A DNA stretch of 64,000 nucleotides. Source: Clostridia bacterium. GTDB lineage: Bacteria > Bacillota > Clostridia > Christensenellales > Aristaeellaceae. The notes under the pieces are model-generated. The model did no database searches, was not told the DNA's origin, and saw nothing but the letters and a program-made list of their open reading frames with translations. Within the stretch, counting starts at the first letter, position 1; the number at the start of each line of letters is the position of its first letter. The stretch lies in the NCBI GenBank assembly GCA_017512805.1, contig JAFWES010000046.1:46363-110362 (forward strand), read 5' to 3'. Positions 31,601-47,314 of the stretch are shown here, one piece after another. The position numbers were made by a program, and so were the translations under genes.

Positions 31601-31906
31601 CTCTGTTCTGGCTTCGCTTGTAATTCGAAGCTTCTGCAGATTCTGATCAGCAATGGCCCCGTTTGAACAGACATAAACCACCTTGAATAGGGTATCTCCC
31701 TCTTTCTTGCGGAGCCTGGCAACCTTAGCCACCGTTCCCCTTGCGATCAGCGTTTTTCCCAAGCCTACCTCATCGGATACCAACACACGCCGCTGTCCAG
31801 ATTTATAGAGTTCTTCTATGCGGTTAACCGTGGCCTTTTGGAAATCCTTCAAGCCGCTGAAGACTCTTTTCTCAATTTCATCAAGCTGTTCAGCTACATT
31901 AGCCAC
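28661..31906 (-). CDS. Large SF2 helicase, last gene of the DUF6361-PLD-helicase module
   Basis: About 1081 residues. Walker A is SDEVGLGKTLIARG near 44-57; the Walker B/motif II is unusual, DLVIMDEFQRF, with DEFQ in place of DEAH; motif III is LLLSATPYKM; and the second RecA domain ends in RIVHWNLPANPIDLEQREGR plus INRF, the motif VI of Snf2-like helicases. About 500 residues lie between motif III and motif VI, much more than usual, and hold an uncharacterised insertion. The start is GTG in GTGGCTAA, overlapping the stop of the PLD gene by 8 bases, with GGAAGGCGG upstream. Nucleic-acid translocation in phage defence is the likely role. Confidence 0.88.
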   Translation of the reverse strand: MANVAEQLDEIEKRVFSGLKDFQKATVNRIEELYKSGQRRVLVSDEVGLGKTLIARGTVAKVARLRKKEGDTLFKVVYVCSNGAIADQNLQKLRITSEARTESVSSSRLSMQHLNICQQENDDELKNRYIQLIPLTPDTSFRMTTGTGVVGERALMFAFLRRIPELQDYVPELEIAMMDEAYKAWGSDKKTFEDEAVKCNEKSGGKYFADMIPRIEQEINAYWKEGMTYQDGIVKLCEAIRQNQGKRVGDTGIIGQLRIIFAKISLDKLEPDLVIMDEFQRFRYLLDAERKPDTETGMLAQKFFHAANVRMLLLSATPYKMYSTMEEIDELNMDEHYEEFLSVMDFLNIDRSRSNNFHTVWKDFSVKLKELTLGDTTILAAKNAAEDAMYQSVCRTERVSEKGNADIIDDSDKRIPLTVLENDIRSYVEAQNLMDAVGIGGHVPVDYIKSSPYLMSFMKDYQLKKDIEKYFKSHPDETEKANKNLFWLKKQTLDRYEKIPNNNARLDRVMDYVMLQGAEKLLWMPPSRPYYEPQGPYKGVDCFTKTLIFSSWEMVPRMLASLISYEAERLTIGDPAIKRPDREVRYFYSDEKRYPPARMNFSEKDGRPSGMPLFCLIYPSGYLAKCYDPIASMNEHAKLRDIRNQIKVKIQQTLKQFTFPINRRSDGRWYYLLPMLLDGIDKALGWLTSVKTVLNSANQEDVNIKKGYKAHLDLLQELLSGIRNNQFSNLGRCPADLLDVLTDMAIASPAVCIRRTYEYYASEGTNVPMVFPTQLARVFLNRMNTVESTAVVELTCAKNPNTPHWKNMLTYCRHGNIQAVFDEYAHLISSGIDHDSHMIERMHAQMMEAMNIRATTYRVDTYQSFQRRMRGLKDNQIGIRTHFAVAFTRGEEKDSSTNRKKVLRNAFNSPFRPFVLATTSIGQEGLDFHNYCRRIVHWNLPANPIDLEQREGRINRFECLAIRQNVAKRYGNITFKHDVWEEMFEKAKEKEKREGMSDLIPYWGLKKTRDMVRIERIVPMYPFSRDELAYERLIKILSMYRLTLGQARQEELLEYLFRNCDDPKKLQKLFINLSPYYKGKS

Positions 31907-33746
31907 GAATTCCCACCGCCTTCCTGAAGATGTCGTATAGCTTCCTGAATTCATCCGGAATAACACCGTCTTCTGAGATGGTCTTCATCAGGTATTCTAT
32001 TCCTTTAAATTTCTCTGGTGCAGCTGCAGCCGTTCTAAGCATTCGTTCATATAGTGCAGGAATCGGAAAATGTGATTGTCTGAAGGAAAAAGAACCGTTT
32101 CCGGACAATTCGCCTGTCTCCAGCAGCGAAAGGATATTCTCATCCCCAAGCAGAAAAATGATATACCGATAAAAGCTGTCCTGATCCCTGATGACACTGG
32201 AAACGACTTCTTTTTCCCGTTGCTCTGGCATCCCTTCAGTTGAAATCAGGATGACCCTGGAAACAGTTTCTTCACCGTCAGAAGCGGAAATAGCATAAAA
32301 CTCAGATATCTGAAGCAATGTTAATCCCGAGAAAACAATATGCTCTGCAAATGGAGCCGTTTCTTTTGAAAGAAGTGGATGGATACTAACCTGATAATCC
32401 TTTGTGTCTACAGTGGCGAAATCAATGATCGCATCAAATGTTCCATCGCTGTTTTCAGTGATCATTGCATGCTGATTGCATCTGCCAATCTCCTTGATGA
32501 CCATCTCCAGCAGATGGGCTTTGTCCTCTTCCGCAGGCTTTTGTTCTACATCTAAATGGACTTTCTCGAAAGGGTTATCAGGGCCTTCCGGATCTTTTCC
32601 AAACAGGGCTGCCTTCATTTTATCCATATTCAGATTGCTTCTGTAAGTATGAAGGCACAGCATGAATTCAACATTCCCATATACCGCGTTTCGAGAGGCG
32701 TTCATTGATCCGAGATACAGATCTGTTTCTGAATGCTTCCGAATCATGTAGATCTTTGCATGTATGTCCTGACGCTGTATGGATCCTGCATCTTCAGATA
32801 TCGCGGCTTCCCCGTCTACGATGTTTTCCTTCATCACATAGATATCGTCTTTAAAATTGCTGATTTCTTCAGGCTTCAGATTTCCCAGGGACATCCCACG
32901 GGTTATCAGCATATACCTGTCATTTTTTATGAGCGAATTTCTGTTTCGATCATTGAAGCTTCGGATAATTTTTCCCGACAGGAACGGAGAAATGATGACA
33001 ATCTCGTGAAATGTGTTCCTGAACAGCGGTGTTTCACTAAACTGGTATTTTTTACCGTTCGCCCCATGAATTCCACCAGGAACGAAGCTATAATCATGGA
33101 ACCATTTCAGATCCTTGTCTTCGAGTTGAAAAATGACATGATACAGTTCGCGAATCATGGAGCGAATCCCCCGGGCTTTCCTCTTTCCGGTTACATCGGA
33201 TGGAAGCTGGCCAACCAGATATCGGAGGAAATCACACAGCGGTTCATTTTTACTGGTCACAGCTTCACCCAGTTGGCCGTCCATAGCGCATGTAATATCC
33301 CAGCTTCTGTCAAATGTCAGGTTTCTGCTGAGAACGATGAATCTATATCTGGATTCATTTTTCCTGTTTTTATATCGGATCAGCCACATTTTCGGATGAA
33401 AGGATGGATATGCTGTCATTCCCCTGCGTTTGTGGATCTTTACTGGGAACACCATTTTCTCCAGCAGAATATAAAGATGATTAACATGATTGGGATAATG
33501 AATCTGGCCATTTTCGCAAAAAAGCGCTACCTTATCCCCGGTATCGCGAAGTGCTTCCAGCAAACATACTGCGTTGTTCATCAGCACGCTGTCTGTTTCT
33601 TCCGACAGGCTTAAAGAAAGACTTGCACCAACCAGAGCATCCAGGTCCAGAGAATATGTCGTTCCAACTGCAAAATCCAATTCATATTCCGCCGGAGGGG
33701 CGAGCAGCTGACCATAGTCCAGCCTATCATTGTTCGGATTAAACAC
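31899..33746 (-). CDS. Phospholipase D-like nuclease-fold protein
   Basis: 615 residues with two HKD half-sites: FHPKMWLIRYKN followed by VLSRNLTF near 140-170, and HAKIYMIRKHSETDLYLGSM followed by NASRNA near 325-350. PLD-fold proteins in defence systems usually act as nucleases. The second site is canonical (H-x-K-x4-D-like); the first keeps His and Lys. The start is the GTG of GTGTTTAA, which overlaps the stop of the DUF6361 gene by 8 bases, with GAGGG upstream; an in-frame ATG 35 codons earlier would lie deep in that gene. No signal peptide, so cytoplasmic. Confidence 0.88.
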   Translation of the reverse strand: MFNPNNDRLDYGQLLAPPAEYELDFAVGTTYSLDLDALVGASLSLSLSEETDSVLMNNAVCLLEALRDTGDKVALFCENGQIHYPNHVNHLYILLEKMVFPVKIHKRRGMTAYPSFHPKMWLIRYKNRKNESRYRFIVLSRNLTFDRSWDITCAMDGQLGEAVTSKNEPLCDFLRYLVGQLPSDVTGKRKARGIRSMIRELYHVIFQLEDKDLKWFHDYSFVPGGIHGANGKKYQFSETPLFRNTFHEIVIISPFLSGKIIRSFNDRNRNSLIKNDRYMLITRGMSLGNLKPEEISNFKDDIYVMKENIVDGEAAISEDAGSIQRQDIHAKIYMIRKHSETDLYLGSMNASRNAVYGNVEFMLCLHTYRSNLNMDKMKAALFGKDPEGPDNPFEKVHLDVEQKPAEEDKAHLLEMVIKEIGRCNQHAMITENSDGTFDAIIDFATVDTKDYQVSIHPLLSKETAPFAEHIVFSGLTLLQISEFYAISASDGEETVSRVILISTEGMPEQREKEVVSSVIRDQDSFYRYIIFLLGDENILSLLETGELSGNGSFSFRQSHFPIPALYERMLRTAAAAPEKFKGIEYLMKTISEDGVIPDEFRKLYDIFRKAVGIRG

Positions 33747-34953
33747 GCTGCTTTCCCTCGCTTTCGAAAATATCCCGGATAATCGTCTTTGCGTTATTGA
33801 AACGATATCCCAGATGTTCTCCGCTGTACCAGGCATTCGGGTCAAATTCACCGGGGTGCTGTGTTTTAGCTCTTCCTTGTTTCAGCTCCTTCTCGCGTTT
33901 TTTAATGAGCGTCTTGAGCTCTTCCGCATCCTCTGCCCGCATGGCTTCTCTTGTTTTTCGAAGAAACTGGCATAATCCCGGATTTCTCCGGAGAAATAGT
34001 ATATCGATTATTCCTTCAAGATTGAATGACGCTATCTCTGTCAGGTGATCCTGCACAGCGTTCCATTCGATCAACACCCTTTTGTTTTCACCATTGGAAA
34101 GAATATCGTTATATAGAATACGAAGCACAAATAAGAATTCAGAAAATGCGCAGGCAAGATCATAATCCTGCTGTATTCCTTCGGGAAAACACGGCATCAG
34201 TCCTCTCAATTCCCTGAAGTTTTCAACCGCCAGAACCTGAGTCATATTATTCTTCAGAATATATGCCAGCATTGTGTCTGGATGATTCATGATGATCTGA
34301 TGTTTCAGGTATTCGCCTTCCTCCGCGGTCAGCTGAAGGGTTAGTTGATTCTCCCATTCCGGCGTATAGGTTGGAACAGACCAGAAATGCTTGTGGAATA
34401 ATCCGCCTGCATCCGAATCATCCGTCTCGTTCTCATCTCCATCTGCTTTGTCGTTTCTATTTCCCAATTTTTTTAAATTCGCTTTTTGGCTTTTTATGGA
34501 GCAAATCGCCCGAAGGTATTCGGACAGGGATACACCTCCGCCGGTAAAAATGCCATAGCTGCGCAATCCTGCCCAATAGATGCTGGCAGGAGTTCTTTTG
34601 ACCCAGCTTCCCTGGCTTAATGATCTGCTTCCAATTACTCCGGCAGTATCATTTTCTTTTTCCAGAAGACGAACAGCGCACTTTTTTTCGGACTCATCCA
34701 GCATTCGCTGGAGACGATTCGGATTCGTTTCTTCATTGTGTTCAAGATCTTTCAGAATATACGGTACGATCAAAAAATACTTGGCCCTGGTCTGAATCGT
34801 CGATGTTCCCGGAAAGAAGCGTTCCGCGAACCCGTCTCTGACAGGAGCAATACCCAGTTCGTCCAAAGTTCCGTTTTCAGAAAGAAGATCCAGAACGCTC
34901 AGAACTTTGTCGCGTTCATTCTTTGAAAAATCGATCCAGCCAAGAGGCACCAT
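33739..34953 (-). CDS. DUF6361 family protein
   Basis: 404 residues. The opening MVPLGWIDFSKNERDKVLSV and GTSTIQTRAKYFLIVPYILK near 50-70 match what I remember of DUF6361 proteins, which recur beside PLD-like and helicase genes. No enzyme motif is evident; a charged, glutamate-rich C-terminal half (LKTLIKKREKELKQGRAK) suggests an adaptor or DNA-binding role. AAGGTG lies close before the ATG. A 183-base gap separates it from the Mrr-like gene, so this three-gene module may have its own promoter, though I see no clear one. Confidence 0.8.
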   Translation of the reverse strand: MVPLGWIDFSKNERDKVLSVLDLLSENGTLDELGIAPVRDGFAERFFPGTSTIQTRAKYFLIVPYILKDLEHNEETNPNRLQRMLDESEKKCAVRLLEKENDTAGVIGSRSLSQGSWVKRTPASIYWAGLRSYGIFTGGGVSLSEYLRAICSIKSQKANLKKLGNRNDKADGDENETDDSDAGGLFHKHFWSVPTYTPEWENQLTLQLTAEEGEYLKHQIIMNHPDTMLAYILKNNMTQVLAVENFRELRGLMPCFPEGIQQDYDLACAFSEFLFVLRILYNDILSNGENKRVLIEWNAVQDHLTEIASFNLEGIIDILFLRRNPGLCQFLRKTREAMRAEDAEELKTLIKKREKELKQGRAKTQHPGEFDPNAWYSGEHLGYRFNNAKTIIRDIFESEGKQRV

Positions 34954-35136: not shown

Positions 35137-36063
35137 TTACAGGCTGTCATTGAAGAAATCTGTATCTATCCTTTTGACTTCGTAGGTCTGTTCAATCGAA
35201 ACGCCCAAATTATTTTTGATCATCAGGCGCATCAGAGCATCCCCATCGATCAGCACAATGTTGGATTGATGAAGATTACCTGCATACTGTATGGCTTCCT
35301 TGCTGAATTTGGCTGTCGTGATGAAAAGCCCCTTGGTTGCTTTTTCTCCCTGAAGCGCTCCGGCAAACTTCTGAATCTCAGGTCGTCCTACTGTGCTGCC
35401 AAGCGCCCACTGCTTTGCCTGAATGTAAATTGTGCTGAAGCCAAGCTGATCCTCTTTGATGGTTCCATCAATCCCACCATCACCGGACAATTTCGTCACA
35501 GCGCCTGCATTGTCTATACCGCTTCCATAGCCCATCTGCAGGAGCAGCTTTACGACAAGTTTTTCAAAATCGCCAGGTTCCAGTTTCATAACTTCTGTCA
35601 TCAGCTCGTCTGCCAAGGAAGCAGTAACCTGCTTATATGCTTCATCCAAAATCTCCATAGGAGATTTTTCTTCCTCTTTTCCTCCGAAATCATCGTCTTT
35701 CCCCTTTCCTGGTTCGATCGTATTTACGGAGTGAAATGCAACAAAAGATGGATATTGCTCCAAGTATTTCAGGTCAATCTTTTCGCCGGACGCCAGGGCT
35801 TTTTTCCCTTCCTCTGTAATGCAATAGTTACCCCTGGACGGCGTGTTTATCAATCCTGCTTTATTAAGATAGGTTCGCGTCCAAGCCACGCGATTATCAA
35901 ATGTTGTCTGTTTCCCACTTGGAAGTCTTTCCGCAAGCTCTTCCTCGGTCAGATTCATCTCAGACGCAATATATTTCCTGACTTCCTTAGCATGGTGGAT
36001 TTTCTCATCTGATACTGCCCTTAAAAAAGCTTCGAAGAATTCGAAAAAACTTGGTACTGCCAT
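35137..36063 (-). CDS. mrr: Mrr-like restriction endonuclease
   Basis: 308 residues. The N-terminal half is a winged-helix region (FFEFFEAFLRAVSDEKIHHA, then KAGLINTPSRGNYCITEEGK). The C-terminal half is the Mrr catalytic domain: DFEKLVVKLLLQMGYG, GDGGIDGTI and IYIQAKQW, giving the D-(E/Q)-x-K site, followed by GLFITTAKFSKEA. Mrr enzymes cut methylated DNA. It lies 20 bases after hsdR and overlaps nothing; GAGGGTAAGAAA precedes the ATG. It could attack foreign methylation patterns, and must tolerate those made by the two methyltransferases of this locus. Confidence 0.92.
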   Translation of the reverse strand: MAVPSFFEFFEAFLRAVSDEKIHHAKEVRKYIASEMNLTEEELAERLPSGKQTTFDNRVAWTRTYLNKAGLINTPSRGNYCITEEGKKALASGEKIDLKYLEQYPSFVAFHSVNTIEPGKGKDDDFGGKEEEKSPMEILDEAYKQVTASLADELMTEVMKLEPGDFEKLVVKLLLQMGYGSGIDNAGAVTKLSGDGGIDGTIKEDQLGFSTIYIQAKQWALGSTVGRPEIQKFAGALQGEKATKGLFITTAKFSKEAIQYAGNLHQSNIVLIDGDALMRLMIKNNLGVSIEQTYEVKRIDTDFFNDSL

Positions 36064-39027: not shown

Positions 39028-40170
39028 CTACTGTAAAAATGCTTCTCTGATCACATTTTTGATTAAATTTCGTCTCCGTAGGCCACTCTTCCACCCGCAA
39101 TATTTTGATTTGTCGGTCTGGTCACATAAAGCGCAGAACGCCTGTTGTTGCTCTATAGGTGGCAACGGAATTTGTAGTGCTTTCAGCTTTACTCCTGGTA
39201 AATGGGCGATTGAAGTTTTGCCTCCAACTATGTCCTCGAATTGATTGAAATCACTATGATGCTTGAACCAGTACGCAAGGTATCCCGGGACCAGATACTG
39301 CTCATTGCATCGTATTCTATGAACCGCCTTTTGAAAATAGCATCCCTCGATTTCATTGTGCCAAATGGCGCAACGTCCTACTTCGCCACCTTCGCATACA
39401 AGCAAATCTCCTTCTCGAAGCTCAAATTCCAGCTGATCCTCTGGAAGGAAATCCATCTCACGAAGTTCACTAAAATCAAAATGAAACCATTGGACATTGA
39501 AATTCGCGATGTAGGGGTGCCGATACTCGCCAGTCTGTTTTTTTGCATCAACCATTTTTCCGAGCCTTGTTTCGGCTATTGTTGCCAACGACCTCATTGG
39601 CCAGTTGAAGCTATTGGTAATAACATCCCCAAACATCTCCACAAATTGCGATTGAACAAGGGCATCTGCCTGCTTCAAAAGTGCTGTGTAGGCCATCTTT
39701 AATCGGTTCATTGCCCACAAAACACTTGAAAGGGCAATTTGTTCATCCAAAGAAGGAATCTGGAATTCCAACTTTGCAAGGTCCCGCCAGTTTATTGTGG
39801 GGGAAAGTGATCCGACAGAAATTTTGATAGCTGCATCGAGAAAATAGTCGGAGCTAATAAAAAACGGAAAGAAATACTTTGTGATAACAGATTCGATTGG
39901 CCGAAGTACCATTCCGTGAGCAGAAAAGATACCATCAAAAGGGGCGATGGCAACCTTCTTTTGATAGGCACGCCGGCGACCAAAGAGTACATCACCCTTA
40001 TGCATAACCAGCTTATCTCCAATAGGAGCTACCTCTGCACCCCAGCGAGTAACTTCTAAGCTACCGCTGTCGAGATGCTCCAATCCAATATATGTATCCT
40101 TGTCCGTTTCAGCTGGCTTTTTCTTTTCGGTCGAATTGATAGCTATCTCTTCAAAACGGTACTTAGGCAC
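39028..40170 (-). CDS. hsdS: Type I restriction-modification specificity subunit HsdS (second copy)
   Basis: About 381 codons, two target-recognition domains. The first runs to about 165 (YIGLEHLDSGSLEVTRWG, GDVLFGRRRAYQKKVAIAPF), a central helical linker contains LVQSQFVEMFGD, and the second has MRSLATIAETRLGKMVDAKK and closes with QQAFCALCDQTDKSK. The start is probably GTG at 40170 (VPKYRFEEIAINS), aligned with the other HsdS and preceded by GGTGGTGA; upstream GTGs are alternatives. It ends with TAG. It lies between the recombinase and hsdR and differs from the first copy in most of its recognition sequence. Confidence 0.88.
   Translation of the reverse strand: MPKYRFEEIAINSTEKKKPAETDKDTYIGLEHLDSGSLEVTRWGAEVAPIGDKLVMHKGDVLFGRRRAYQKKVAIAPFDGIFSAHGMVLRPIESVITKYFFPFFISSDYFLDAAIKISVGSLSPTINWRDLAKLEFQIPSLDEQIALSSVLWAMNRLKMAYTALLKQADALVQSQFVEMFGDVITNSFNWPMRSLATIAETRLGKMVDAKKQTGEYRHPYIANFNVQWFHFDFSELREMDFLPEDQLEFELREGDLLVCEGGEVGRCAIWHNEIEGCYFQKAVHRIRCNEQYLVPGYLAYWFKHHSDFNQFEDIVGGKTSIAHLPGVKLKALQIPLPPIEQQQAFCALCDQTDKSKYCGWKSGLRRRNLIKNVIREAFLQ
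39632..39653 (-). repeat. 22-bp direct repeat in hsdS central linker (copy 1)
   Basis: AACATCTCCACAAATTGCGA plus TT is identical to 41884-41905 in the other hsdS gene. It encodes SQFVEMF in both. The copies have the same orientation and bracket the recombinase gene. Confidence 0.9.
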
Positions 40171-40232
40171 ACATATCACCACCAATCTGTACGTTTCTAA
40201 GCCATCCCTTTTGGATAAATTGCGATTGGCAA

Positions 40233-41225
40233 TCAGCTAAGGTACTTCTGATGGCTTGCTTTAACATTAGTTTGATCAACCATGGCATATTCCATTGTTG
40301 TTTCAATTTTCGAATGGCCAAGGAGTTTCTGGACCTGCTCAACAGGCATTCCTTTATCAATCGCTCTCGTTGCCAACGTCCGACGGAATTTATGCGGATG
40401 AACCCTACCGACGCCCAATTTGCGTCCCAATTCCCGAACCCTGATTTCAACACCGCTGATTTCCAAGCGGTCATGAGGCTTCTGTAGTGTAACGAAAAGA
40501 GCAGGATTATCATCTGTTCTGCTGTTGAGATAATTTTTAAGATGCACTTTTGTTCGCGCATCGAAATATACAGGACGTTCTTTACTGCCTTTTCCAAACA
40601 CTACACACTCCCTTCCGTCAAAATCTACATCAGCCCGGTTGAGTCCAACAAGTTCGCTTACACGAATCCCTGTCGAAGATAACAGATCGATCATCGCCAA
40701 GTCTCTTAGGCAAGTACACCCATCCCGTAAGGTCTCCATTGTCTCGTCCGAATATGTTTCCTTTACTTGCTTCTCAGATCTGACCTTATGAATTCTCCGG
40801 ACGGGACTTTTCAAAATAAGATCCTCATCTTCAAGCCAGGAAAAGAAACTTGAAAAGATCCTTCGAAGATTATCGATATTGCCTTTGCTACAGTTAGTCC
40901 GTTTACGGTAATCAGCAAGGTACGTTCGAAGTTCATCTGTTTTAACCTGTACCATCGGCTTCTTAATCTCACTAAACATCTTTTTCAACGTATTCTCATA
41001 ATAATGAATCGTCTTTTCGCTACAGCCCTCCACTCTCTTTGCATCCAGAAATTTTCTTAACAATTCCTGGTTGTCCGGATCTTTCGAAATAAGTGGTTCT
41101 TCGGTTGGCAATATTGAAACTGCCATCAGGAGAATCGACAATGTGTCCTTGAGCATTCGAAGCTGTGAATTATTCAGAGCTCCCTGCATAGCCCGTAAGA
41201 CGTCGTTGATGATCTGTTCTTTCAT
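40233..41225 (-). CDS. Tyrosine recombinase between the two hsdS genes
   Basis: 330 residues. A SAM-like N-terminal DNA-binding domain (FLDAKRVEGCSEKTIHYYEN, LRRIFSSFFSWLEDEDLI) is followed by the catalytic domain with Arg in SSTGIRVSELVGL, HPHKFRRTLATRAI (H-x-x-R), LLGHSKIETTMEY (second His and the Tyr nucleophile). All key residues are present. Enzymes of this kind beside hsdS genes usually shuffle recognition domains, so switching of specificity is the likely job. No clear attachment sites were found, apart from the 22-bp repeats in hsdS. Confidence 0.93.
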   Translation of the reverse strand: MKEQIINDVLRAMQGALNNSQLRMLKDTLSILLMAVSILPTEEPLISKDPDNQELLRKFLDAKRVEGCSEKTIHYYENTLKKMFSEIKKPMVQVKTDELRTYLADYRKRTNCSKGNIDNLRRIFSSFFSWLEDEDLILKSPVRRIHKVRSEKQVKETYSDETMETLRDGCTCLRDLAMIDLLSSTGIRVSELVGLNRADVDFDGRECVVFGKGSKERPVYFDARTKVHLKNYLNSRTDDNPALFVTLQKPHDRLEISGVEIRVRELGRKLGVGRVHPHKFRRTLATRAIDKGMPVEQVQKLLGHSKIETTMEYAMVDQTNVKASHQKYLS

Positions 41226-41276
41226 GTTGATACACCTCTCCTTTAATTATGTACCAACATCCTACACCAGCTTCAA

Positions 41277-42413
41277 TCAGCCAAATATTCCCTTCATGAT
41301 GGCGTTTCTACTTTTTTCAAGAGATTCTAACGCTTGCCGGATTGCCAATTTTGATTTGTCAGTCTGTTTGACATAACTAATAAATCGCTCTTGCTCCTCT
41401 AACGGAGGTACTAATAATTTGAGAGTTCGTATTGAATCAAAATTTAACCCCGCCTTTACTGAACTTAGATTCTTTTCAAAGAATTGTTTTTTGCCAGCTT
41501 CGCTCTCCATAAAAAATGCAACATAAATAGGATCCAATACTTTACGATCTAGACGTATGCATGTAAGGTGTTGATTGATATATGCCCCATGTTCAGCTAT
41601 TTCTTTTGTTACAACACCTGTACGTCCAAGATCTGCTGTAATGCTGATAAGCAAATCACCTTCTTTAAGCCGTGTCCTATCCGCCTCAGCATTATGTGGT
41701 GGTTTTATGCATTGCACATCATCCACTGAAATAATACAATCTTTTACATTTTTAATCGTTATAAACCATTTGCCCTCATCAGAATAATATTGTGCCCAAC
41801 CACGAGACCCAGAAGTCAAAAAGCTAATAAAATCGGATAATTGATGAACTGGTAGTCCCTTTGTATTGTTTACCGGATCCCCGAACATCTCCACAAATTG
41901 CGATTTTACCAGCTCGTCTGTTTGTATAAGTAAGTCTTGATATGCCTTTCTTGTCCGTTCAACAGACCATAGCAAAGTAGCAAGCTTATGCTGCTCTGCT
42001 AATCCCGGCAGATCAAATTCGTACTCCGCCAATTGTGCCCATTTAGCTCGAGGAGACAAAGATCCTGCTGACTTTTCCATTGCAAAATCGAAAAAATCAT
42101 CGCTGCTGATGATAAATGGTAAAAGCGTTGGAAGCAGTTTGTCCTTTTGGGCAGCAATAACTGTAATATCTCCTGAACATACTCCATCAAAAGGTGCAAC
42201 AGCAGCCTTTTTCAGGTATGCTCGTCTGCGGCCAAACAAAACCTGGCCTTTATGAAACAGCTTTGTAAATGTGTTGTCCGAAGCATCAGACCAATGCGTC
42301 AAATTAATCTCTCCAGGAATTAGATGCTCAAGGCCAATCACTGGCAGCCCTGTTGGATCTTTGGAAGTCTCTCGGACTTCAATCGCCACATCTCCCAAAC
42401 GCACCTTACTCAT
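41277..42413 (-). CDS. hsdS: Type I restriction-modification specificity subunit HsdS (first copy)
   Basis: 378 residues with two recognition domains. The first holds VIGLEHLIPGEINLTHWSDA and GQVLFGRRRAYLKKAAVAPF; the linker has LVKSQFVEMFGD; the second begins HQLSDFISFLTSGSRGWAQY and ends EEQERFISYVKQTDKSK. The ATG overlaps the hsdM stop (ATGAGTAA), with GGAAGGAGG upstream. It gives sequence specificity to the methyltransferase and nuclease. It resembles the second hsdS only in the framework segments. Confidence 0.92.
   Translation of the reverse strand: MSKVRLGDVAIEVRETSKDPTGLPVIGLEHLIPGEINLTHWSDASDNTFTKLFHKGQVLFGRRRAYLKKAAVAPFDGVCSGDITVIAAQKDKLLPTLLPFIISSDDFFDFAMEKSAGSLSPRAKWAQLAEYEFDLPGLAEQHKLATLLWSVERTRKAYQDLLIQTDELVKSQFVEMFGDPVNNTKGLPVHQLSDFISFLTSGSRGWAQYYSDEGKWFITIKNVKDCIISVDDVQCIKPPHNAEADRTRLKEGDLLISITADLGRTGVVTKEIAEHGAYINQHLTCIRLDRKVLDPIYVAFFMESEAGKKQFFEKNLSSVKAGLNFDSIRTLKLLVPPLEEQERFISYVKQTDKSKLAIRQALESLEKSRNAIMKGIFG
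41884..41905 (-). repeat. 22-bp direct repeat in hsdS central linker (copy 2)
   Basis: Identical and in the same orientation as 39632-39653. Recombination between the two would fuse the first half of this hsdS to the second half of the other and release a circle carrying the recombinase. Confidence 0.9.
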
Positions 42414-43890
42414 CCGCTTCGCCTCCTTCCAACATGGCAACAACAGCTTCAAGCGCACTATGCATGATCGCTGCGTTTTCCTGCCAGGAATCGAGGCATT
42501 CCTGTAGATTAAGCGATACGAGCTCTCGATCCTTTTTTCTCACATATAGTGGGATACTGAGATTGAAACGGTTATTTGCAATCTCTTCAAAATCGACCAA
42601 GCGGGAATAGCCTTCCTCTTTCGTACCATTCAGATAGGCTCCCGCGATGTGCTCTATATGGCTATCTTCTAAGTAGCTCTGCGCATTTTTACGCGTGACT
42701 TCATCGACAGCATTAATAAATAATACCTTGTGCTTACGCTCTTCTGATTTGGATGTTCTGCAGATTACGATACACGCTTCCATCGGAGCATTAAAAAACA
42801 GATTGGGGCCAAGGCCAATTACACATTCAATCAAATCACTTTTTACCAGGTTCTCCCGAAGCAAAGATTCTTCTTCGCGAAACAGCACGCCATGGGGGAA
42901 CAGAATCGCGCATCGACCGGTACCCGGCTTCATGCTTTTTAGAATATGCTGGAAGAATGCATAATCTGCACGCCCCTGAGGCGGTGTGCCCAGAAAATTT
43001 CGGCCGTATTTATCATTTTCAAATGCGGTGCGATCCCATTGTTTGATAGAATATGGTGGATTGGCCAGTACGAGATCAAATCGCTGAATCTGACCGCCAA
43101 CCACGAACGCCGGGTTGCGAAGTGTATCGCCCGTGACAATGTGAAAATCGGAAATACCATGCAGGAAGAGGTTCATTCTTCCGATCGCGCTGGTCAGATT
43201 ATTGATTTCCTGGCCGTAGATCTTTACATTTCTGTATTCCTGTCCGTGTTCTTTGATCCACGCGATCGAGGAGATGAGCATTCCGGCGCTTCCACAGGTT
43301 GGATCATAGATGCTTTCCTGACTCTGTGGCCGCAGCATTTCCGTCATCAGATGGACCACCGTTCGGTTTGTATAGAATTCCTGTGCTGTATGTCCGCTGT
43401 CGTCCGCAAACTTCTTGATCAGGTATTCATATCCCTGTCCTAATTCATCCTCTGGACAATTTGCGAGGGACAGAGTCAGCTTGGAAAAGTGCTCCAGCAG
43501 GTCCTTCAGGAGCCGATCAGGAAGGCGGTTCTTATTCGTCCAGGCACCATCTCCAAAGATACCAGTCAGTTTTTCGCCGTTCGCTTTCTCGATTTCCCGG
43601 AAGGCATTCACGATCGCTTGTCCGACATCTTCTGTTACCATCCGGACATCCCTCCAGTGATGACCATCTGGGATCACGAAAGAGTGATCGTCCGAAAACA
43701 GATCCGCATCCTCCCCATACTCGGCTTCGAATTCTGCTGTTTCCTCATCATAAACATCACAAAGCCGTTTAAAAAACAATAACGGGAAAATATACTGTTT
43801 GTAGCTTCCGGCATCAATGTTCGTTCTCAGCAGGACAGCAGAGCCCCAGAGATAGGATTCCAGCTCTGAGATGGGAATTCTTTCAGCCAT
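42406..43890 (-). CDS. hsdM: Type I DNA methyltransferase subunit HsdM (stand-alone)
   Basis: 494 residues. The N-terminal helical HsdM domain (YKQYIFPLLFFKRLCDVYDE) is followed by the N6-adenine methyltransferase domain with motif I DPTCGSAGML near 197 and motif IV NPPY near 277. SAM-dependent methylation of adenine requires HsdS for targeting. The ATG overlaps the previous stop by 8 bases (ATGGCTGA), after GGAGGGAGG. It is a paralogue of the methyltransferase part of the fusion gene upstream, but clearly different in sequence, so the two are not a recent duplication. Confidence 0.95.
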   Translation of the reverse strand: MAERIPISELESYLWGSAVLLRTNIDAGSYKQYIFPLLFFKRLCDVYDEETAEFEAEYGEDADLFSDDHSFVIPDGHHWRDVRMVTEDVGQAIVNAFREIEKANGEKLTGIFGDGAWTNKNRLPDRLLKDLLEHFSKLTLSLANCPEDELGQGYEYLIKKFADDSGHTAQEFYTNRTVVHLMTEMLRPQSQESIYDPTCGSAGMLISSIAWIKEHGQEYRNVKIYGQEINNLTSAIGRMNLFLHGISDFHIVTGDTLRNPAFVVGGQIQRFDLVLANPPYSIKQWDRTAFENDKYGRNFLGTPPQGRADYAFFQHILKSMKPGTGRCAILFPHGVLFREEESLLRENLVKSDLIECVIGLGPNLFFNAPMEACIVICRTSKSEERKHKVLFINAVDEVTRKNAQSYLEDSHIEHIAGAYLNGTKEEGYSRLVDFEEIANNRFNLSIPLYVRKKDRELVSLNLQECLDSWQENAAIMHSALEAVVAMLEGGEADE

Positions 43891-46309
43891 GGATGTAACC
43901 TCCCTCCATCAGAAGCTTTGTCAATTCTTCCTCTGCTGCTTTGACCTCCGCCAGGGCAGCCATAAAATTCTTTCGGACCTCCCCTGGAGATATGGTCGGC
44001 GCCTGTGTTTTCTCGATATAGGAATTGACAGACAAGGTATAATCTTTTGCCCGAACAGTATCGAGATCTACCACCGCGGCGAAATCGATGACATTCTGAT
44101 AGTCCTGCCACAGCCGATAGACTTTCGCGATGTCCTCCTCCGTCATGATGTTTTGTGCACGCTTCGGAGTATAGATCGTGCTGGCGTCGATCATACAGAT
44201 TTTCCCTTGATGAGAGGCCGCTTTGTGGTTATTCAGATATAGAATGCATGCTGAAACGCCCGCGCCATAGAACACCCCGCCTACCAGGGTAATGACTGCT
44301 TCCAGCTTATCAGACTCAATCAGCTGCTTTCTGATCTCGCCTTCCTTTCCGCCATGGAAAAGGACACCCTGGGGCATGACAACCGCACATCGGCCAGTAT
44401 CCTTCTTCATAGAGCACACCATATGCTGCAGCCAGGCAAAATCAGCATTGGAATCAGGGGGACAACCCCAGATATTCCGGCCATACTGGTCCATGGAGAA
44501 TGCTTCCGCTCCCCAGCCCTTCAGGCCAAATGGAGGATTGGCCAGAACGCAGTCGAACCTGCGGATCGATCCGCCGGAAAGAAACTGCGGATGGGTCAGC
44601 GTGTCTTCCCGCAGGATGGAAAACTCCTTTGCGCCATGCAGGAAGAGGTTCATCCGGGCAATTGCGGAGGTAGACAGGTTCTTTTCCTGCCCAAAGATTC
44701 GGCCATAAGCCGCCTGCTCATTCTGCATCTGTCGGATCGCCTCGATCAGCATTCCGCCTGTTCCGCACGCAGGGTCATATACGGTTTCTCCCGGCTTTGG
44801 CGCAAGCATCTGGACCATCAGCTTGACAATAGAGCGAGGCGTATAAAACTCCCCGGCGTTTTTCTTGCTAAGGTCAGCGAACTTTTTGATCAGGAACTCA
44901 TAGGCATCGCCCATGATATCTGCAGAGTAATTCCGGTTTCCTTTCTTGACGGAGCTCATATGCTCGATCAGGTCCTTCAGATCGGCATCCGTCAGCCTTC
45001 CTTTGTCCGTCCAGCTGGCATCATCAAATGCCGAATACAGACCGGACATGGTATTCGGATTGGCATGCTCGATACCCATCATCGCATTGACAATTGCCTG
45101 ACCGACATCCTCTGTTGTCTGTCGCAGATCGTTCCAGTGGCAGCCATCCGGGATAATGAAGGCATGTATTTCTTCCTCATCAAAGAGGTCCACATCGTCA
45201 CCATACTGGGCAATCGCATCCTGCGTCTCTTCATCATAGCAGTCTGAAACGCGCTGCAGAAACAGAAGCGGAATAATGTATGATTTAAAGTCCTCATGGC
45301 CGATGTGACCATGAAGAATATTGCAGGCCTGATACAGATGATTAAAGAGCTTCGTTGCGGATGTTTCCTGGCTCTCAATCGTTGTAGATGCTTCAGCCTG
45401 TTCGGTGGTTTTGACGGAATCCAGCATCATTTCGGAGCGGCTGCCAGCATCCTCTTTTTTCTGATTTGCCCGCGGTTTATATTCGATCTGTCTGCTCATA
45501 TTCTCATTGATGTTCTTCTCAATTGCCATTCCGTATTGCTGCTCGAAAGCCATTACAATGCCAAGCTGAGTCTCATCCAGGAACGTAAGGGCATGTTTAC
45601 GAATATCTGCCGGAATGCCATAATAAGCCTCCGCAATGCTGCCTGCCATCGCGGCGATGGTATCACTATCTCCGCCAATTGAGATTGCATTGCGAATCGC
45701 ATCCTCAAATCCGGTGGATTCAAGGAATGCTTCGATCGCCTGGGGAACGCTTCCCTGACAAGAAACATCAAAGGAGTATTCTTCCCGGATCTGATCCAGG
45801 GTGAAATCCAGCGGATAATAATGATCATGAATATGATCCCGGATTTCCAGGATGCTGGAACCGTTTCTGGCCATCCAGATGGCGGACGTGATCGCTCTGG
45901 CTCCCTTGATTCCTTCAGGATGATTATGCGTAACGCCCGTCACCGCATCCGAGAGGAGCAGCGCCTCTTCCAGGGATCCTGCCGCCCAGGCACATGGCGA
46001 AACGCGCATGGCTGAACCGTTCCCCCAGCTGCCATATGGCTGAGGCTCAGCGGAAAGCAGCCATTGTTTGAAACGGCTCCCATATCCATGGGGATACTTT
46101 TTTCCAAGCTCTCGCATGGCTTTCACTGCCTCCTCTGGCAGGTCGGACCAGTCCTTCTTTGATTGCAGGATTGCCTGGGCGACAGCCAGCGTCATATTAC
46201 TGTCGTCTGTGAGATGACAATGATATGTCAGCAGATCAAATTCTTTTGATTTCAGGTTCCTCCATTCGAAACGCGAACCTGAAATGTCTCCAACAATAGC
46301 ACCCAGCAT
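43883..46309 (-). CDS. hsdM: ADP-ribosylglycohydrolase (DraG) fused to a type I methyltransferase (HsdM)
   Basis: 808 residues. Residues 1-265 form a full ADP-ribosylglycohydrolase domain: GAIVGDISGS at 3-12, metal-binding LTDDSNMT at 33-40, GNGSAMR at 96-102, THNHPEG at 127-133 and GGDSDT at 212-217. A polar linker (266-320) leads to a complete HsdM: KSYIIPLLFLQRVSDCYDEE near 342-361, motif I DPACGTGGML at 512-521 and NPPF at 591-594. There is no stop or frameshift between the parts. AGAGAGGTAC lies before the ATG. DraG enzymes remove ADP-ribose from proteins (or other acceptors); HsdM methylates adenine. Their fusion suggests a defence role against ADP-ribosylation by phage or toxin, or control of the complex; this is inference. 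Confidence 0.93.
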   Translation of the reverse strand: MLGAIVGDISGSRFEWRNLKSKEFDLLTYHCHLTDDSNMTLAVAQAILQSKKDWSDLPEEAVKAMRELGKKYPHGYGSRFKQWLLSAEPQPYGSWGNGSAMRVSPCAWAAGSLEEALLLSDAVTGVTHNHPEGIKGARAITSAIWMARNGSSILEIRDHIHDHYYPLDFTLDQIREEYSFDVSCQGSVPQAIEAFLESTGFEDAIRNAISIGGDSDTIAAMAGSIAEAYYGIPADIRKHALTFLDETQLGIVMAFEQQYGMAIEKNINENMSRQIEYKPRANQKKEDAGSRSEMMLDSVKTTEQAEASTTIESQETSATKLFNHLYQACNILHGHIGHEDFKSYIIPLLFLQRVSDCYDEETQDAIAQYGDDVDLFDEEEIHAFIIPDGCHWNDLRQTTEDVGQAIVNAMMGIEHANPNTMSGLYSAFDDASWTDKGRLTDADLKDLIEHMSSVKKGNRNYSADIMGDAYEFLIKKFADLSKKNAGEFYTPRSIVKLMVQMLAPKPGETVYDPACGTGGMLIEAIRQMQNEQAAYGRIFGQEKNLSTSAIARMNLFLHGAKEFSILREDTLTHPQFLSGGSIRRFDCVLANPPFGLKGWGAEAFSMDQYGRNIWGCPPDSNADFAWLQHMVCSMKKDTGRCAVVMPQGVLFHGGKEGEIRKQLIESDKLEAVITLVGGVFYGAGVSACILYLNNHKAASHQGKICMIDASTIYTPKRAQNIMTEEDIAKVYRLWQDYQNVIDFAAVVDLDTVRAKDYTLSVNSYIEKTQAPTISPGEVRKNFMAALAEVKAAEEELTKLLMEGGYIHG

Positions 46310-46327: not shown

Positions 46328-47314
46328 TTAACCATGCGCATCATCGATCGCATCCTGGAGATATCTAACAAATGCCTCCTTGACACGCACTGGTTCCACA
46401 ATGTTCATCTCTCCGACAAACTGAACGACCCAAGCATAGAAAGTCCCGCTGATACAAACCGGGACGGTGACATCAAACATCTCTTCCGTAGTATTCTTCA
46501 ACTCGATTCCTTCGCCGAAACGGTCAATTACCTGATCCAGAATCTTTTTCCTACAGCGGAGGGTGACCTCTTCCTCGTTTCCATTATACATCCAGAAGAC
46601 TTTGTCCGTGTAATCCTGAATGTTGAAGTCTTCCGGTTCCGGGACGCGTTTTTTCTGAATCTGTTTGACATGCATCATCCGGTCAACGCGAAAGGTATTG
46701 ACATGCTGCCGCCTATCGGAGAAGCCCACCAGGTAATAGCGGTCATTGTTCCAAATGGTGGCGTAGGGGGAAACGATGTATTCTTCCTCCGGCGTGCCCT
46801 CATGCCGCGGAACCTGCTTCTTGTCCACGGTGTATTCCATATACTTGAATGTGATCTTGTGATCCCGGTCGATGGCCCGGCGGATGGCCTGCACGCTGAG
46901 AAGGATCTGCTGATTCGGGGCCTTCACATGCTCCGAAACCAGGATCTGCGGTTTTAAGCTTTCCCGGAAGGATGGGGCCCCCATTCTGACCAGCTTTTCG
47001 ATCAGTTCGCGACTCTTCTCCTTGGTGATGAACTGGGAGGATGACACCGCGTCCACCAGGATCTGCAGCTCGGGCTGGCTCCATTCCCGGTCCAGCCAGC
47101 TGTAGGTTGTGGACAGGCCCTCTGTCTCATTCACCTGGATGTCGTAGCCCGCGCTTTGCAGTGCTTCGATATCGTCCCGAAGCGTGGGGATAATGATCGG
47201 GCAACCCTTATTGGCCATCTCCTCCCGGATCTGGGCAGTCGTCACAGGCTTGTTTTCGTCCGAATTCTCCCGCAGATACTGCATCAGATAGACGATCCTG
47301 TTTTTCGTTGCCAT
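46328..47314 (-). CDS. WYL-domain transcription regulator, first gene of the defence operon
   Basis: 328 residues. An N-terminal winged helix-turn-helix (KNRIVYLMQYLRENSDENKP, VTTAQIREEM) is followed by a WYL domain (ITFKYMEYTVDKKQVPRHEG, YIVSPYATIWNNDRYYLVGF, HVNTFRVDRMMHVKQIQ) and a WCX-like C-terminus. WYL regulators sense nucleic-acid ligands and often repress defence operons. Here it stands 18 bases before the fusion gene and is transcribed with it, so it probably represses its own operon. GGCGAGGAG precedes the ATG. Confidence 0.93.
   Translation of the reverse strand: MATKNRIVYLMQYLRENSDENKPVTTAQIREEMANKGCPIIIPTLRDDIEALQSAGYDIQVNETEGLSTTYSWLDREWSQPELQILVDAVSSSQFITKEKSRELIEKLVRMGAPSFRESLKPQILVSEHVKAPNQQILLSVQAIRRAIDRDHKITFKYMEYTVDKKQVPRHEGTPEEEYIVSPYATIWNNDRYYLVGFSDRRQHVNTFRVDRMMHVKQIQKKRVPEPEDFNIQDYTDKVFWMYNGNEEEVTLRCRKKILDQVIDRFGEGIELKNTTEEMFDVTVPVCISGTFYAWVVQFVGEMNIVEPVRVKEAFVRYLQDAIDDAHG

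What the first reader, a model, noticed from the sequence alone, without database searches (positions are those of the whole stretch)
43883..46309. ADP-ribosylglycohydrolase fused to a type I restriction methyltransferase
Seen: one uninterrupted 808-codon frame with all DraG-type metal and ADP-ribose motifs (LTDDSNMT, GNGSAMR, THNHPEG, GGDSDT) followed by a complete HsdM (DPACGTGGML, NPPF). Known: phages and toxins ADP-ribosylate host proteins, RNA or DNA, and DraG/ARH and macrodomain enzymes reverse this. Inference: the fusion could keep the methyltransferase or its target DNA free of ADP-ribose, so that a phage cannot disarm restriction by this route, or it could make methylation respond to ADP-ribosylation. 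I do not know of a described system with this fusion.
Basis: partly seen in the sequence, partly recalled or inferred. Interest (0 to 1): 0.88.

Follow-up and report, generated by a model that had tools for sequence, protein, structure and literature searches.

The report
ADP-ribose eraser fused to restriction methyltransferase
A bacterial DNA-restriction system carries, built into one of its two DNA-methylating subunits, an enzyme domain that looks able to remove ADP-ribose tags, probably so that the system keeps working when an invader tries to tag it or its surroundings; the same fusion is found in other bacteria and appears to have been renewed several times in evolution.

Summary
The fusion is real, on the minus strand (46309 to 43883, 808 aa): an ARH3-like DraG domain (PF03747), a variable linker, a complete HsdM. 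It is no assembly join: 26 other distinct loci carry it, including named strains. Key DraG residues are kept in 25 of 25 aligned rows that reach the N-terminus; the one usable pair shows purifying selection.

The HsdM part is M1-type, the m6A subunit of PacII-like non-canonical m6A/m4C type I systems; the next gene is M2-type. In 49 of 49 fused frames (27 distinct loci) the partner is closer to M1 than to M2.

Trees show one M1 lineage with some DraG-less members, but DraG modules of several origins (AU p 3.5e-6 against one clade): the module has been swapped or re-fused.

Most likely function: an on-board de-ADP-ribosylase protecting the restriction complex from invader ADP-ribosyltransferases. 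This is inference; substrate (protein, DNA or small molecule) and activity are untested, and structure prediction was off. No description of the fusion was found in the open-access papers searched. New variant of a known kind.

The parts
45530..46309 (-). DraG/ARH-type ADP-ribosylhydrolase domain (residues 1-260 of the fusion); E15, T34-D35-D36, G96-N97, T127-H128, D214, D216, T217
   Evidence: PF03747 119.2 bits; profile nearest ARH3 in the PDB, 80 bits; residues kept in relatives
45359..45529 (-). linker (about residues 261-317): fast-evolving, with a short shared stretch around GSRSEMM
   Evidence: aligned in 26 fused rows; linker dN is 2.0 to 8.4 times that of DraG or M1 in the six pairs computed
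43883..45358 (-). HsdM of M1 type (residues 318-808 and stop) with AGEF at 485 and NPPF at 591
   Evidence: best PDB match PacII 7vru_A 451.7 bits vs 7vru_B 393.6; M1 motifs as in PMC9613975
42406..43890 (-). HsdM of M2 type (494 aa) with AQEF and NPPY; start overlaps the end of the fusion gene
   Evidence: best PDB match 7vru_B 562.4 bits vs 7vru_A 432.5
41277..42458 (-). HsdS specificity subunit, first copy
   Evidence: PF01420 and PADLOC Specificity_I
40233..41225 (-). Xer-type tyrosine recombinase between the two S genes; may reshuffle S (inference)
   Evidence: PF00589, PF13495; NF040815 244.8 bits, cut-off 220
39028..40185 (-). HsdS specificity subunit, second copy
   Evidence: PF01420
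36084..38996 (-). HsdR restriction/translocase subunit
   Evidence: HSDR_N, SWI2_SNF2, T1R_D3-like
46328..47314 (-). WYL-domain transcription factor 18 bases upstream of the fusion; possible regulator, not a constant companion
   Evidence: WYL, WCX; WYL gene held in 4 of 26 fused loci looked at, window included
35137..36063 (-). Mrr-type type IV restriction enzyme downstream of HsdR; island neighbour, not claimed as part of the mechanism
   Evidence: Mrr_N, Mrr_cat

Best explanation
A PacII-like type I restriction-modification system (M1, M2, S, R) carries an ARH3-like ADP-ribosylhydrolase at the N-terminus of its m6A-type subunit M1. If the complex is M1M2S as in PacII, each complex would carry one hydrolase. 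I propose that it is an on-board eraser: when an invading phage or mobile element ADP-ribosylates host macromolecules, the domain strips ADP-ribose from the restriction complex and nearby partners, so restriction cannot be switched off by this route. Shown here: the fusion and its spread, conserved active-site residues, a sign of purifying selection, M1-type partner in every fused frame found, several origins of the hydrolase module, no recognised ADP-ribosyltransferase domain in the neighbours scanned. Inferred: enzymatic activity, protein substrate, invader as source of the ADP-ribose, protective role.
For: Key residues kept: E15, D35, D36 in 25 of 25 rows that reach the N-terminus; D214, D216, T217 in 26 of 26. 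DraG dN/dS 0.04 in L046/L047, the only one of six pairs with dS below 1 throughout. 49 of 49 fused frames (27 distinct loci) have an M part closer to M1 than to M2; an M2-type frame follows in 24 of 27, the other three being cut by a contig end (L050, L120) or broken (L042). DraG modules on this M1 lineage come from several branches (AU p 3.5e-6 against all fused as one clade; p 7e-4 against one clade of the five in the window's M1 subclade). DarT found in 0 of 10 host genomes of fused (7) and unfused (3) loci. No ART family in the 20 flanking proteins scanned or in ten window proteins. Iyer et al. 2022 (PMC9503650, section 3.8 read) argue that ARGs without coupled ART counter viral ARTs and list WYL or Nudix regulators, vWA, SseB, Macro and NADAR as companions; the window has a WYL regulator, and the same DraG subfamily is elsewhere fused to NADAR (L058) and to SseB plus Macro (L135).
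Against: No substrate or activity shown. Three close M1 relatives (L129, L159, L160) have M2, S and R but no DraG, so the domain is not needed for restriction itself; four more distant M1s (L169-L171, L173) also lack it. WYL is held in only 4 of 26 loci, several of which have little upstream sequence; no phosphatase or chaperone among the ten window proteins scanned. The 20 flanking proteins are a part of the 120 flanking frames listed, and 9 of the 20 matched no Pfam family, so an unrecognised ART is possible. ARH3 kinship fits serine- or DNA-linked ADP-ribose at least as well as arginine-linked. Searches gave no paper on a phage enzyme that ADP-ribosylates a type I enzyme. The DRAT search is uninformative, as nothing rang in its controls.
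Confidence: 0.36

Rival explanations
1. The substrate is DNA: the M1-borne hydrolase removes ADP-ribose from bases or DNA ends, so that S and M can read or methylate the site and R can translocate and cut. It would undo invader DNA hypermodification or damage from DarT-like toxins.
For: Attached to the DNA-binding methyltransferase complex on its m6A-type subunit. Nearest solved relatives are ARH3 (80 bits), ahead of DraG (42) and ARH1 (33). The same DraG subfamily is fused to NADAR (L058) and to SseB plus Macro (L135); macrodomain DarG reverses thymidine ADP-ribosylation (PMC8883491, passages). That guanosine ADP-ribosylation is reversible is in the title of PMC11543638 (listing and start of abstract only); that NADAR does this is recalled. 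DarTG embedded in a type I R-M island is published (PMC12255303, passages).
Against: DarT found in 0 of 10 genomes; ARG domains have been argued to prefer macromolecular, mainly protein, adducts (PMC9503650); no phage with an ADP-ribosylated genome identified here.
Confidence: 0.22
2. Regulation: a host ADP-ribosyltransferase modifies the R-M complex and the built-in hydrolase reverses it, so that methylation or restriction responds to NAD or stress state, as in DraT-DraG.
For: DraG proper is half of such a switch (PMC4465626, passage; PMC9503650). A fused eraser would give local control.
Against: No ART domain recognised in 20 flanking proteins (9 of them without any Pfam match) nor in ten window proteins; DarT found in 0 of 10 genomes. 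DRAT search inconclusive. Other ART families were not searched genome-wide.
Confidence: 0.1
3. Small molecules: the domain degrades an NAD-derived signal or O-acyl-ADP-ribose, and fusion to M1 couples this to restriction.
For: ARGs acting on O-acetyl-ADP-ribose are mentioned in PMC9503650. A WYL regulator in the window could sense an ADP-ribose product (proposal in PMC9503650). A Nudix frame runs into the HsdR frame in L046.
Against: No evident reason for tethering to a DNA methyltransferase; WYL held in only 4 of 26 loci; ARGs argued to prefer macromolecules.
Confidence: 0.1
4. Scaffold or reader: the DraG domain binds ADP-ribosylated or other targets, or merely stabilises the complex, and its catalysis is secondary.
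For: A binding domain could also be kept and swapped.
Against: The metal-site and catalytic positions looked at are kept in the rows examined, with T/S exchange at T34, S37 and T127 in some; unusual for a pure binder.
Confidence: 0.12
5. Chance passenger or assembly artefact.
For: None found beyond the rarity of the fusion: M1 at E<=1e-110 in 6 of 300 family genomes, 4 of them fused.
Against: 27 distinct loci, in Bacillota, a Deferribacterota MAG and viral contigs, among them the named strains Brevibacillus reuszeri DSM 9887 and Paenibacillus pinistramenti ASL46; dN/dS 0.04; several origins of the module.
Confidence: 0.03

Closest known systems
PacII-type non-canonical m6A/m4C type I R-M (M1M2S, PDB 7vru/7vs4; PMC9613975)
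   Same: Two different M subunits side by side, M1 with AGEF/NPPF and M2 with NPPY, plus S and R
   Different: M1 here carries a 260-residue ADP-ribosylhydrolase and linker; the PacII M1 chain is 499 aa without it. The M2 pocket reads AQEF, not AAEF
ARG-centric host systems proposed by Iyer et al. 2022 (PMC9503650 section 3.8)
   Same: ARG/DraG domain with no coupled ART seen, WYL regulator beside it in the window; the same DraG subfamily has NADAR, SseB and Macro partners elsewhere
   Different: Those systems often have phosphatases and chaperones; the words Hsd, methyltransferase and MTase do not occur in the paper's main text. Here the ARG is part of a type I methyltransferase
ARH3 / DraG / ARH1 ADP-ribosylhydrolases (PF03747)
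   Same: Whole-domain match and the metal-site motifs; the ARH3 Glu of GSFYEA aligns with E15 (that it is the catalytic E41 is recalled)
   Different: Distant in sequence; substrate unknown; fused to HsdM
DarTG embedded in a type I R-M island (RptR-RMS-DarTG-M48; PMC12255303, passages)
   Same: ADP-ribose chemistry linked to type I R-M and to a regulator
   Different: There a toxin-antitoxin pair of separate genes; here no DarT found and an ARH-fold eraser fused to HsdM

Membership tests
PacII-like m6A/m4C type I R-M | two different M subunits, one of each family, next to S and R | tested here: met
   M1 and M2 each score best with their own PacII chain; S x2 and R follow
PacII-like m6A/m4C type I R-M | M1 with NPPF (and AGEF) | tested here: met
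   window AGEF 485, NPPF 591; NPPF in 23 of 23 rows covering it; AGEF in 23 of 25 rows covering it, AGEY in L041 and L042
PacII-like m6A/m4C type I R-M | M2 with NPPY | tested here: met
   NPPY in P0003 and invariant in 11 of 11 M2 rows aligned
PacII-like m6A/m4C type I R-M | M2 pocket motif AAEF (reported for the systems aligned in PMC9613975; I take it as a reported trait, not the definition) | tested here: not met
   AQEF in 11 of 11 M2 rows aligned
PacII-like m6A/m4C type I R-M | Arg (R29 of PacII M2) highly conserved in M2 but not in M1 | tested here: inconclusive
   R22 of M2 falls opposite R29 by the match offset and is invariant in 11 rows; the window M1 has His there, but the consensus of 18 fused M1 rows has Arg
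PacII-like m6A/m4C type I R-M | m6A on one strand and m4C on the other | not testable with these tools
   needs methylome sequencing
PF03747 ADP-ribosylhydrolase (DraG/ARH) | domain match over curated cut-off | tested here: met
   119.2 bits vs 26.2
PF03747 ADP-ribosylhydrolase (DraG/ARH) | binuclear-metal motifs TDD and GGDxDT, catalytic Glu, TH motif | tested here: met
   kept in the rows examined, except that T34 is Ser in L049 and T127 is Ser in some rows
PF03747 ADP-ribosylhydrolase (DraG/ARH) | ADP-ribosylhydrolase activity | not testable with these tools
   structure prediction also unavailable
ARG-centric anti-ART host system (Iyer et al. 2022) | ARG without genomically coupled ART | tested here: inconclusive
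   no ART family in 20 flanking proteins (9 without any Pfam match; 120 flanking frames listed) nor in ten window proteins; DarT 0 of 10 genomes; DRAT uninformative
ARG-centric anti-ART host system (Iyer et al. 2022) | Nudix or WYL transcription factor (reported in over 42%) | tested here: met
   WYL gene next to the window fusion; but held in only 4 of 26 fused loci
ARG-centric anti-ART host system (Iyer et al. 2022) | coupled phosphatase (a little over 55%) or chaperone | tested here: not met
   none among the ten window proteins scanned; so it may work like such a system but is not filed as one
DarTG toxin-antitoxin | DarT ART plus macrodomain DarG | tested here: not met
   no DarT found in the genome, no macrodomain among the ten window proteins

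The most novel reading that the evidence does not exclude
A restriction system with a built-in decoating enzyme: the M1-borne ARH3-like domain erases ADP-ribose from invader DNA (or from the restriction complex while it sits on DNA), so that an ADP-ribose-based counter-defence is undone at the very site where methylation or cleavage is decided. The repeated replacement of this module on one M1 lineage would mark an arms race over the kind of ADP-ribose linkage, as S-gene shuffling marks one over DNA sequence.
Probability: 0.2. Interest if true: 0.92.

Novelty: new variant of a known kind. Interest (0 to 1): 0.7.

Why it matters
Type I restriction has known antagonists, such as the DNA mimics Ocr and ArdA, which also inhibit PacII (PMC9613975, passages), and ADP-ribosyltransferases are widespread in large DNA viruses (PMC9503650). 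A restriction complex that carries its own ADP-ribose eraser would be a strong hint that invaders fight restriction by ADP-ribosylation, a route for which searches gave me no paper, and it offers a defined enzyme with which to look for the target. The unfused sister systems (L159, L160; M1 70% identical) make a natural with/without comparison.

Tried and rejected
Assembly join: rejected by 26 further distinct loci. Dead DraG: rejected. Single fusion inherited unchanged: rejected for the DraG part, although the M1 part is one lineage. My first M1 tree held truncated copies that only looked unfused (L153-L158) and a contig-cut locus (L143); I dropped these and other repeat loci and rebuilt. That tree also leaves out L037, L042, L050, L120 and L138, whose M1 is partial. 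A first DraG tree had lost L118, L133 and L119 through my duplicate filter and left out most viral loci; one search replaced it and holds the 62 best-scoring DraGs not fused to M1. Test D (main fused group as one clade) did not finish; with L043 and L055 added that group is already one side of a branch with weak bootstrap (52). Held alone, the window, L118 and L133 DraGs are compatible with one clade (p 0.62). Internal start for a DraG-free M1: no ribosome-binding-site-like sequence seen by eye before the four linker ATGs. WYL as a constant partner: rejected, 4 of 26 (the profile came from few seeds, and several loci hold little upstream sequence). dN/dS: only L046/L047 has dS below 1 throughout. 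Fold comparison: not possible. Papers: for a described fusion; passages of PMC11005914, PMC8883491, PMC3637587, PMC12724379, PMC4465626, PMC3900703, PMC6773835, PMC3321955, PMC12255303, PMC12707154, PMC5512222 were looked at and show no such fusion; the other listed papers were seen as listings only. Lmo0067 gave no paper; ZacA/ZacB nothing relevant in the 20 of 62 papers listed.
Full report
OBSERVATION. The reported frame is real but lies on the minus strand: 46309 down to 43883, 808 codons without a stop; the plus strand of the same stretch has several stops. Pfam finds PF03747 (residues 1-232), HsdM_N (323-450) and N6_Mtase (462-769), all far above cut-off.

WHAT THE METHYLTRANSFERASE IS. 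Against solved chains, the M part scores best with PacII 7vru_A (451.7 bits) and less with 7vru_B (393.6); the next gene, 43890 to 42406, scores the other way round (562.4 for B, 432.5 for A). PMC9613975 (passages) describes these non-canonical systems: M1 with AGEF/NPPF makes m6A, M2 with AAEF/NPPY makes m4C. The window has AGEF and NPPF in the fused protein, and AQEF and NPPY in its neighbour; that chains A and B of 7vru are M1 and M2 is my reading from these motifs. The locus is WYL regulator, DraG-M1, M2, S, tyrosine recombinase, S, R, all on the minus strand, followed by an Mrr enzyme and a ZacA/ZacB pair.

WHAT THE N-TERMINAL DOMAIN IS. A profile of 16 fused DraG domains matches ARH3 best among solved chains (80 bits), then Lmo0067 (67), MJ1187 (60), 2cwc (47), DraG (42 for 2woe), 6dre (36; recalled as Tri1) and ARH1 (33). 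E15 aligns with the Glu of the ARH3 GSFYEA stretch, which I recall as its catalytic E41. In 26 aligned fused rows, E15, D35 and D36 are kept in 25 of 25 that reach the N-terminus (L144 is cut), and D214, D216 and T217 in 26 of 26; T34 is Ser in L049. Of six pairs only L046/L047 has dS below 1 throughout; there dN/dS is 0.04 for DraG, 0.10 for M1 and 0.34 for the linker.

HOW WIDESPREAD. Frames were compared with window proteins. Over 253 fetched loci (many of them repeats of one place), 230 hold a DraG frame over 100 bits; 49 DraG frames also match HsdM, and in 49 of 49 the match is closer to M1 than to M2. After removing repeats these are 27 distinct loci, the window included. Twenty-one run unbroken from DraG start to M1 end; L144, L050 and L120 are cut by contig ends; L037, L138 and L042 have interrupted M1 frames. 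An M2-type frame follows in 24 of 27. Hosts include Brevibacillus reuszeri DSM 9887, Paenibacillus pinistramenti ASL46, Colidextribacter sp. OB.20, a Deferribacteraceae MAG and IMG/VR contigs. Of 9 viral contigs found with M1, 8 are fused and one (L143) is cut within M1. Of 13 viral contigs found with M2, 5 have a fused M1, 4 a distant unfused M1 (44-48% identical) and 4 begin at M2. The architecture is rare: M1 relatives at E<=1e-110 in 6 of 300 family genomes, 4 fused and 2 unfused; at E<=1e-150 in 3 of 391 class genomes, 2 fused and 1 unfused; at E<=1e-130 in 2 of 398 phylum genomes, both fused, one the window's own and one (G695) with an interrupted M1. The window's genome is in each of these samples. 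DraG by itself is common: a match in 161 of 300 family genomes.

HISTORY. In an M1 tree of 29 rows (22 fused, 7 unfused), rooted on the four distant unfused M1s, 22 fused and 3 unfused rows form one clade (100/100); two unfused rows (L159, L160) sit inside the window's subclade of seven (100/98), and no DraG is left in those fetched stretches. The DraG tree of 88 rows (26 fused to M1, 62 not fused to M1) is different: the window, L118 and L133 fall in a set with eleven DraGs not fused to M1 (97/94), five of these eleven from the window's own bacterial family, the nearest (L131) from its genus and inside a 99/94 set with them; L119 pairs with L044 (98/94) and L051 with L040 (98/87); the rest lie elsewhere. 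All fused DraGs as one clade is rejected (p 3.5e-6), and so is one clade of the five from the window's M1 subclade (p 7e-4). The bootstrap had not fully settled, and the second group was chosen after earlier trees had been seen, so its p value is optimistic. The simplest reading is replacement or re-fusion of the hydrolase, at least three origins, on a persisting M1. Two DraGs not fused to M1 (L043, L055) nest among the fused ones, so the traffic may run both ways.

NEIGHBOURS. Twenty flanking proteins from fifteen loci (thirteen fused, two unfused), out of 120 flanking frames listed, were scanned: GmrSD, Mrr, a Schlafen-type helicase, PLD-ResIII, conjugation genes, Nudix, a transporter, a glycosyltransferase and others; 9 of 20 matched no family; no ADP-ribosyltransferase was recognised. 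DarT is found in 0 of 10 genomes tried, with one of 14 controls ringing; the DRAT search rang in no control and is uninformative. A WYL gene is held in 4 of 26 loci (window, L118, L037 just upstream; L128 beyond R).

MECHANISM. Iyer et al. (PMC9503650, section 3.8 read in full; passages elsewhere) propose that ARG domains without coupled ART, often with WYL or Nudix regulators, phosphatases, vWA, SseB, Macro or NADAR, counter viral ADP-ribosylation. The DraG subfamily of the window also occurs fused to NADAR (L058) and to SseB plus Macro (L135). I take the fused DraG to be such an eraser, tied to the restriction complex. Whether the target is protein (0.36) or DNA (0.22) cannot be told; the ARH3 kinship and attachment to a DNA enzyme keep DNA open. 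DraG-less sister systems show the domain is an accessory.

NOVELTY. In the open-access library no paper describing this fusion was found (passages checked). Subscription papers, REBASE notes and InterPro architecture tables could not be searched, and the architecture may well be visible there. The main text of PMC9503650 has no mention of Hsd or methyltransferase. I rate it a new variant of a known kind: a known type I subtype plus a known enzyme family in a conserved and recurrent combination.

Noticed in passing
39028-42458: Two S genes in the same orientation with an Xer-type recombinase between them and imperfect direct repeats shared by the S genes; the best inverted repeat is 28 nt at 71%. 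Relatives such as L118 hold up to four S-like frames around the recombinase, suggesting S-gene shuffling.
   Followed up: partly
31899-34953: ZacA (313 bits) and ZacB (491 bits) by PADLOC, a DUF6361 protein and a PLD-like protein, downstream of the R-M operon; a paper search for these names gave nothing relevant in its listing.
   Followed up: partly
L141:3434-5053, L142:3377-5023, L146:3449-5053, L049:8258-9892, L163:608-2212: A protein of about 540 aa just upstream of DraG-M1: C-terminal TRD (Methylase_S; L163 by BLAST to HsdS only), weak N6_Mtase match in L142, L146 and L049, no [NDS]PP[FYW] motif in any of the five. It looks like a catalytically silent M-S fusion that may add or block specificity.
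   Followed up: partly
L121:2875-5628, L058:5942-7321, L135:91-1923, L078:7291-8556: The same DraG subfamily fused to a protein kinase domain plus dockerin, to NADAR, to SseB plus Macro, and to DUF6508; L127 and L130 look like vWA fusions by eye.
   Followed up: partly
L042 (Streptococcus anginosus J4206): The fused frame departs from M1 after DPACG, and no M2 or R frame is found in the fetched locus; described only.
   Followed up: no
window genome contigs C15 and C28: Another DraG frame of 310 aa (G000:C15:13032-13721) and a further DraG match in two adjoining pieces (C28:53409-53952) elsewhere in the same genome.
   Followed up: no
L046:6307-7041: A Nudix protein whose frame runs into the HsdR frame in a fused locus; some Nudix enzymes cleave ADP-ribose.
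   Followed up: no
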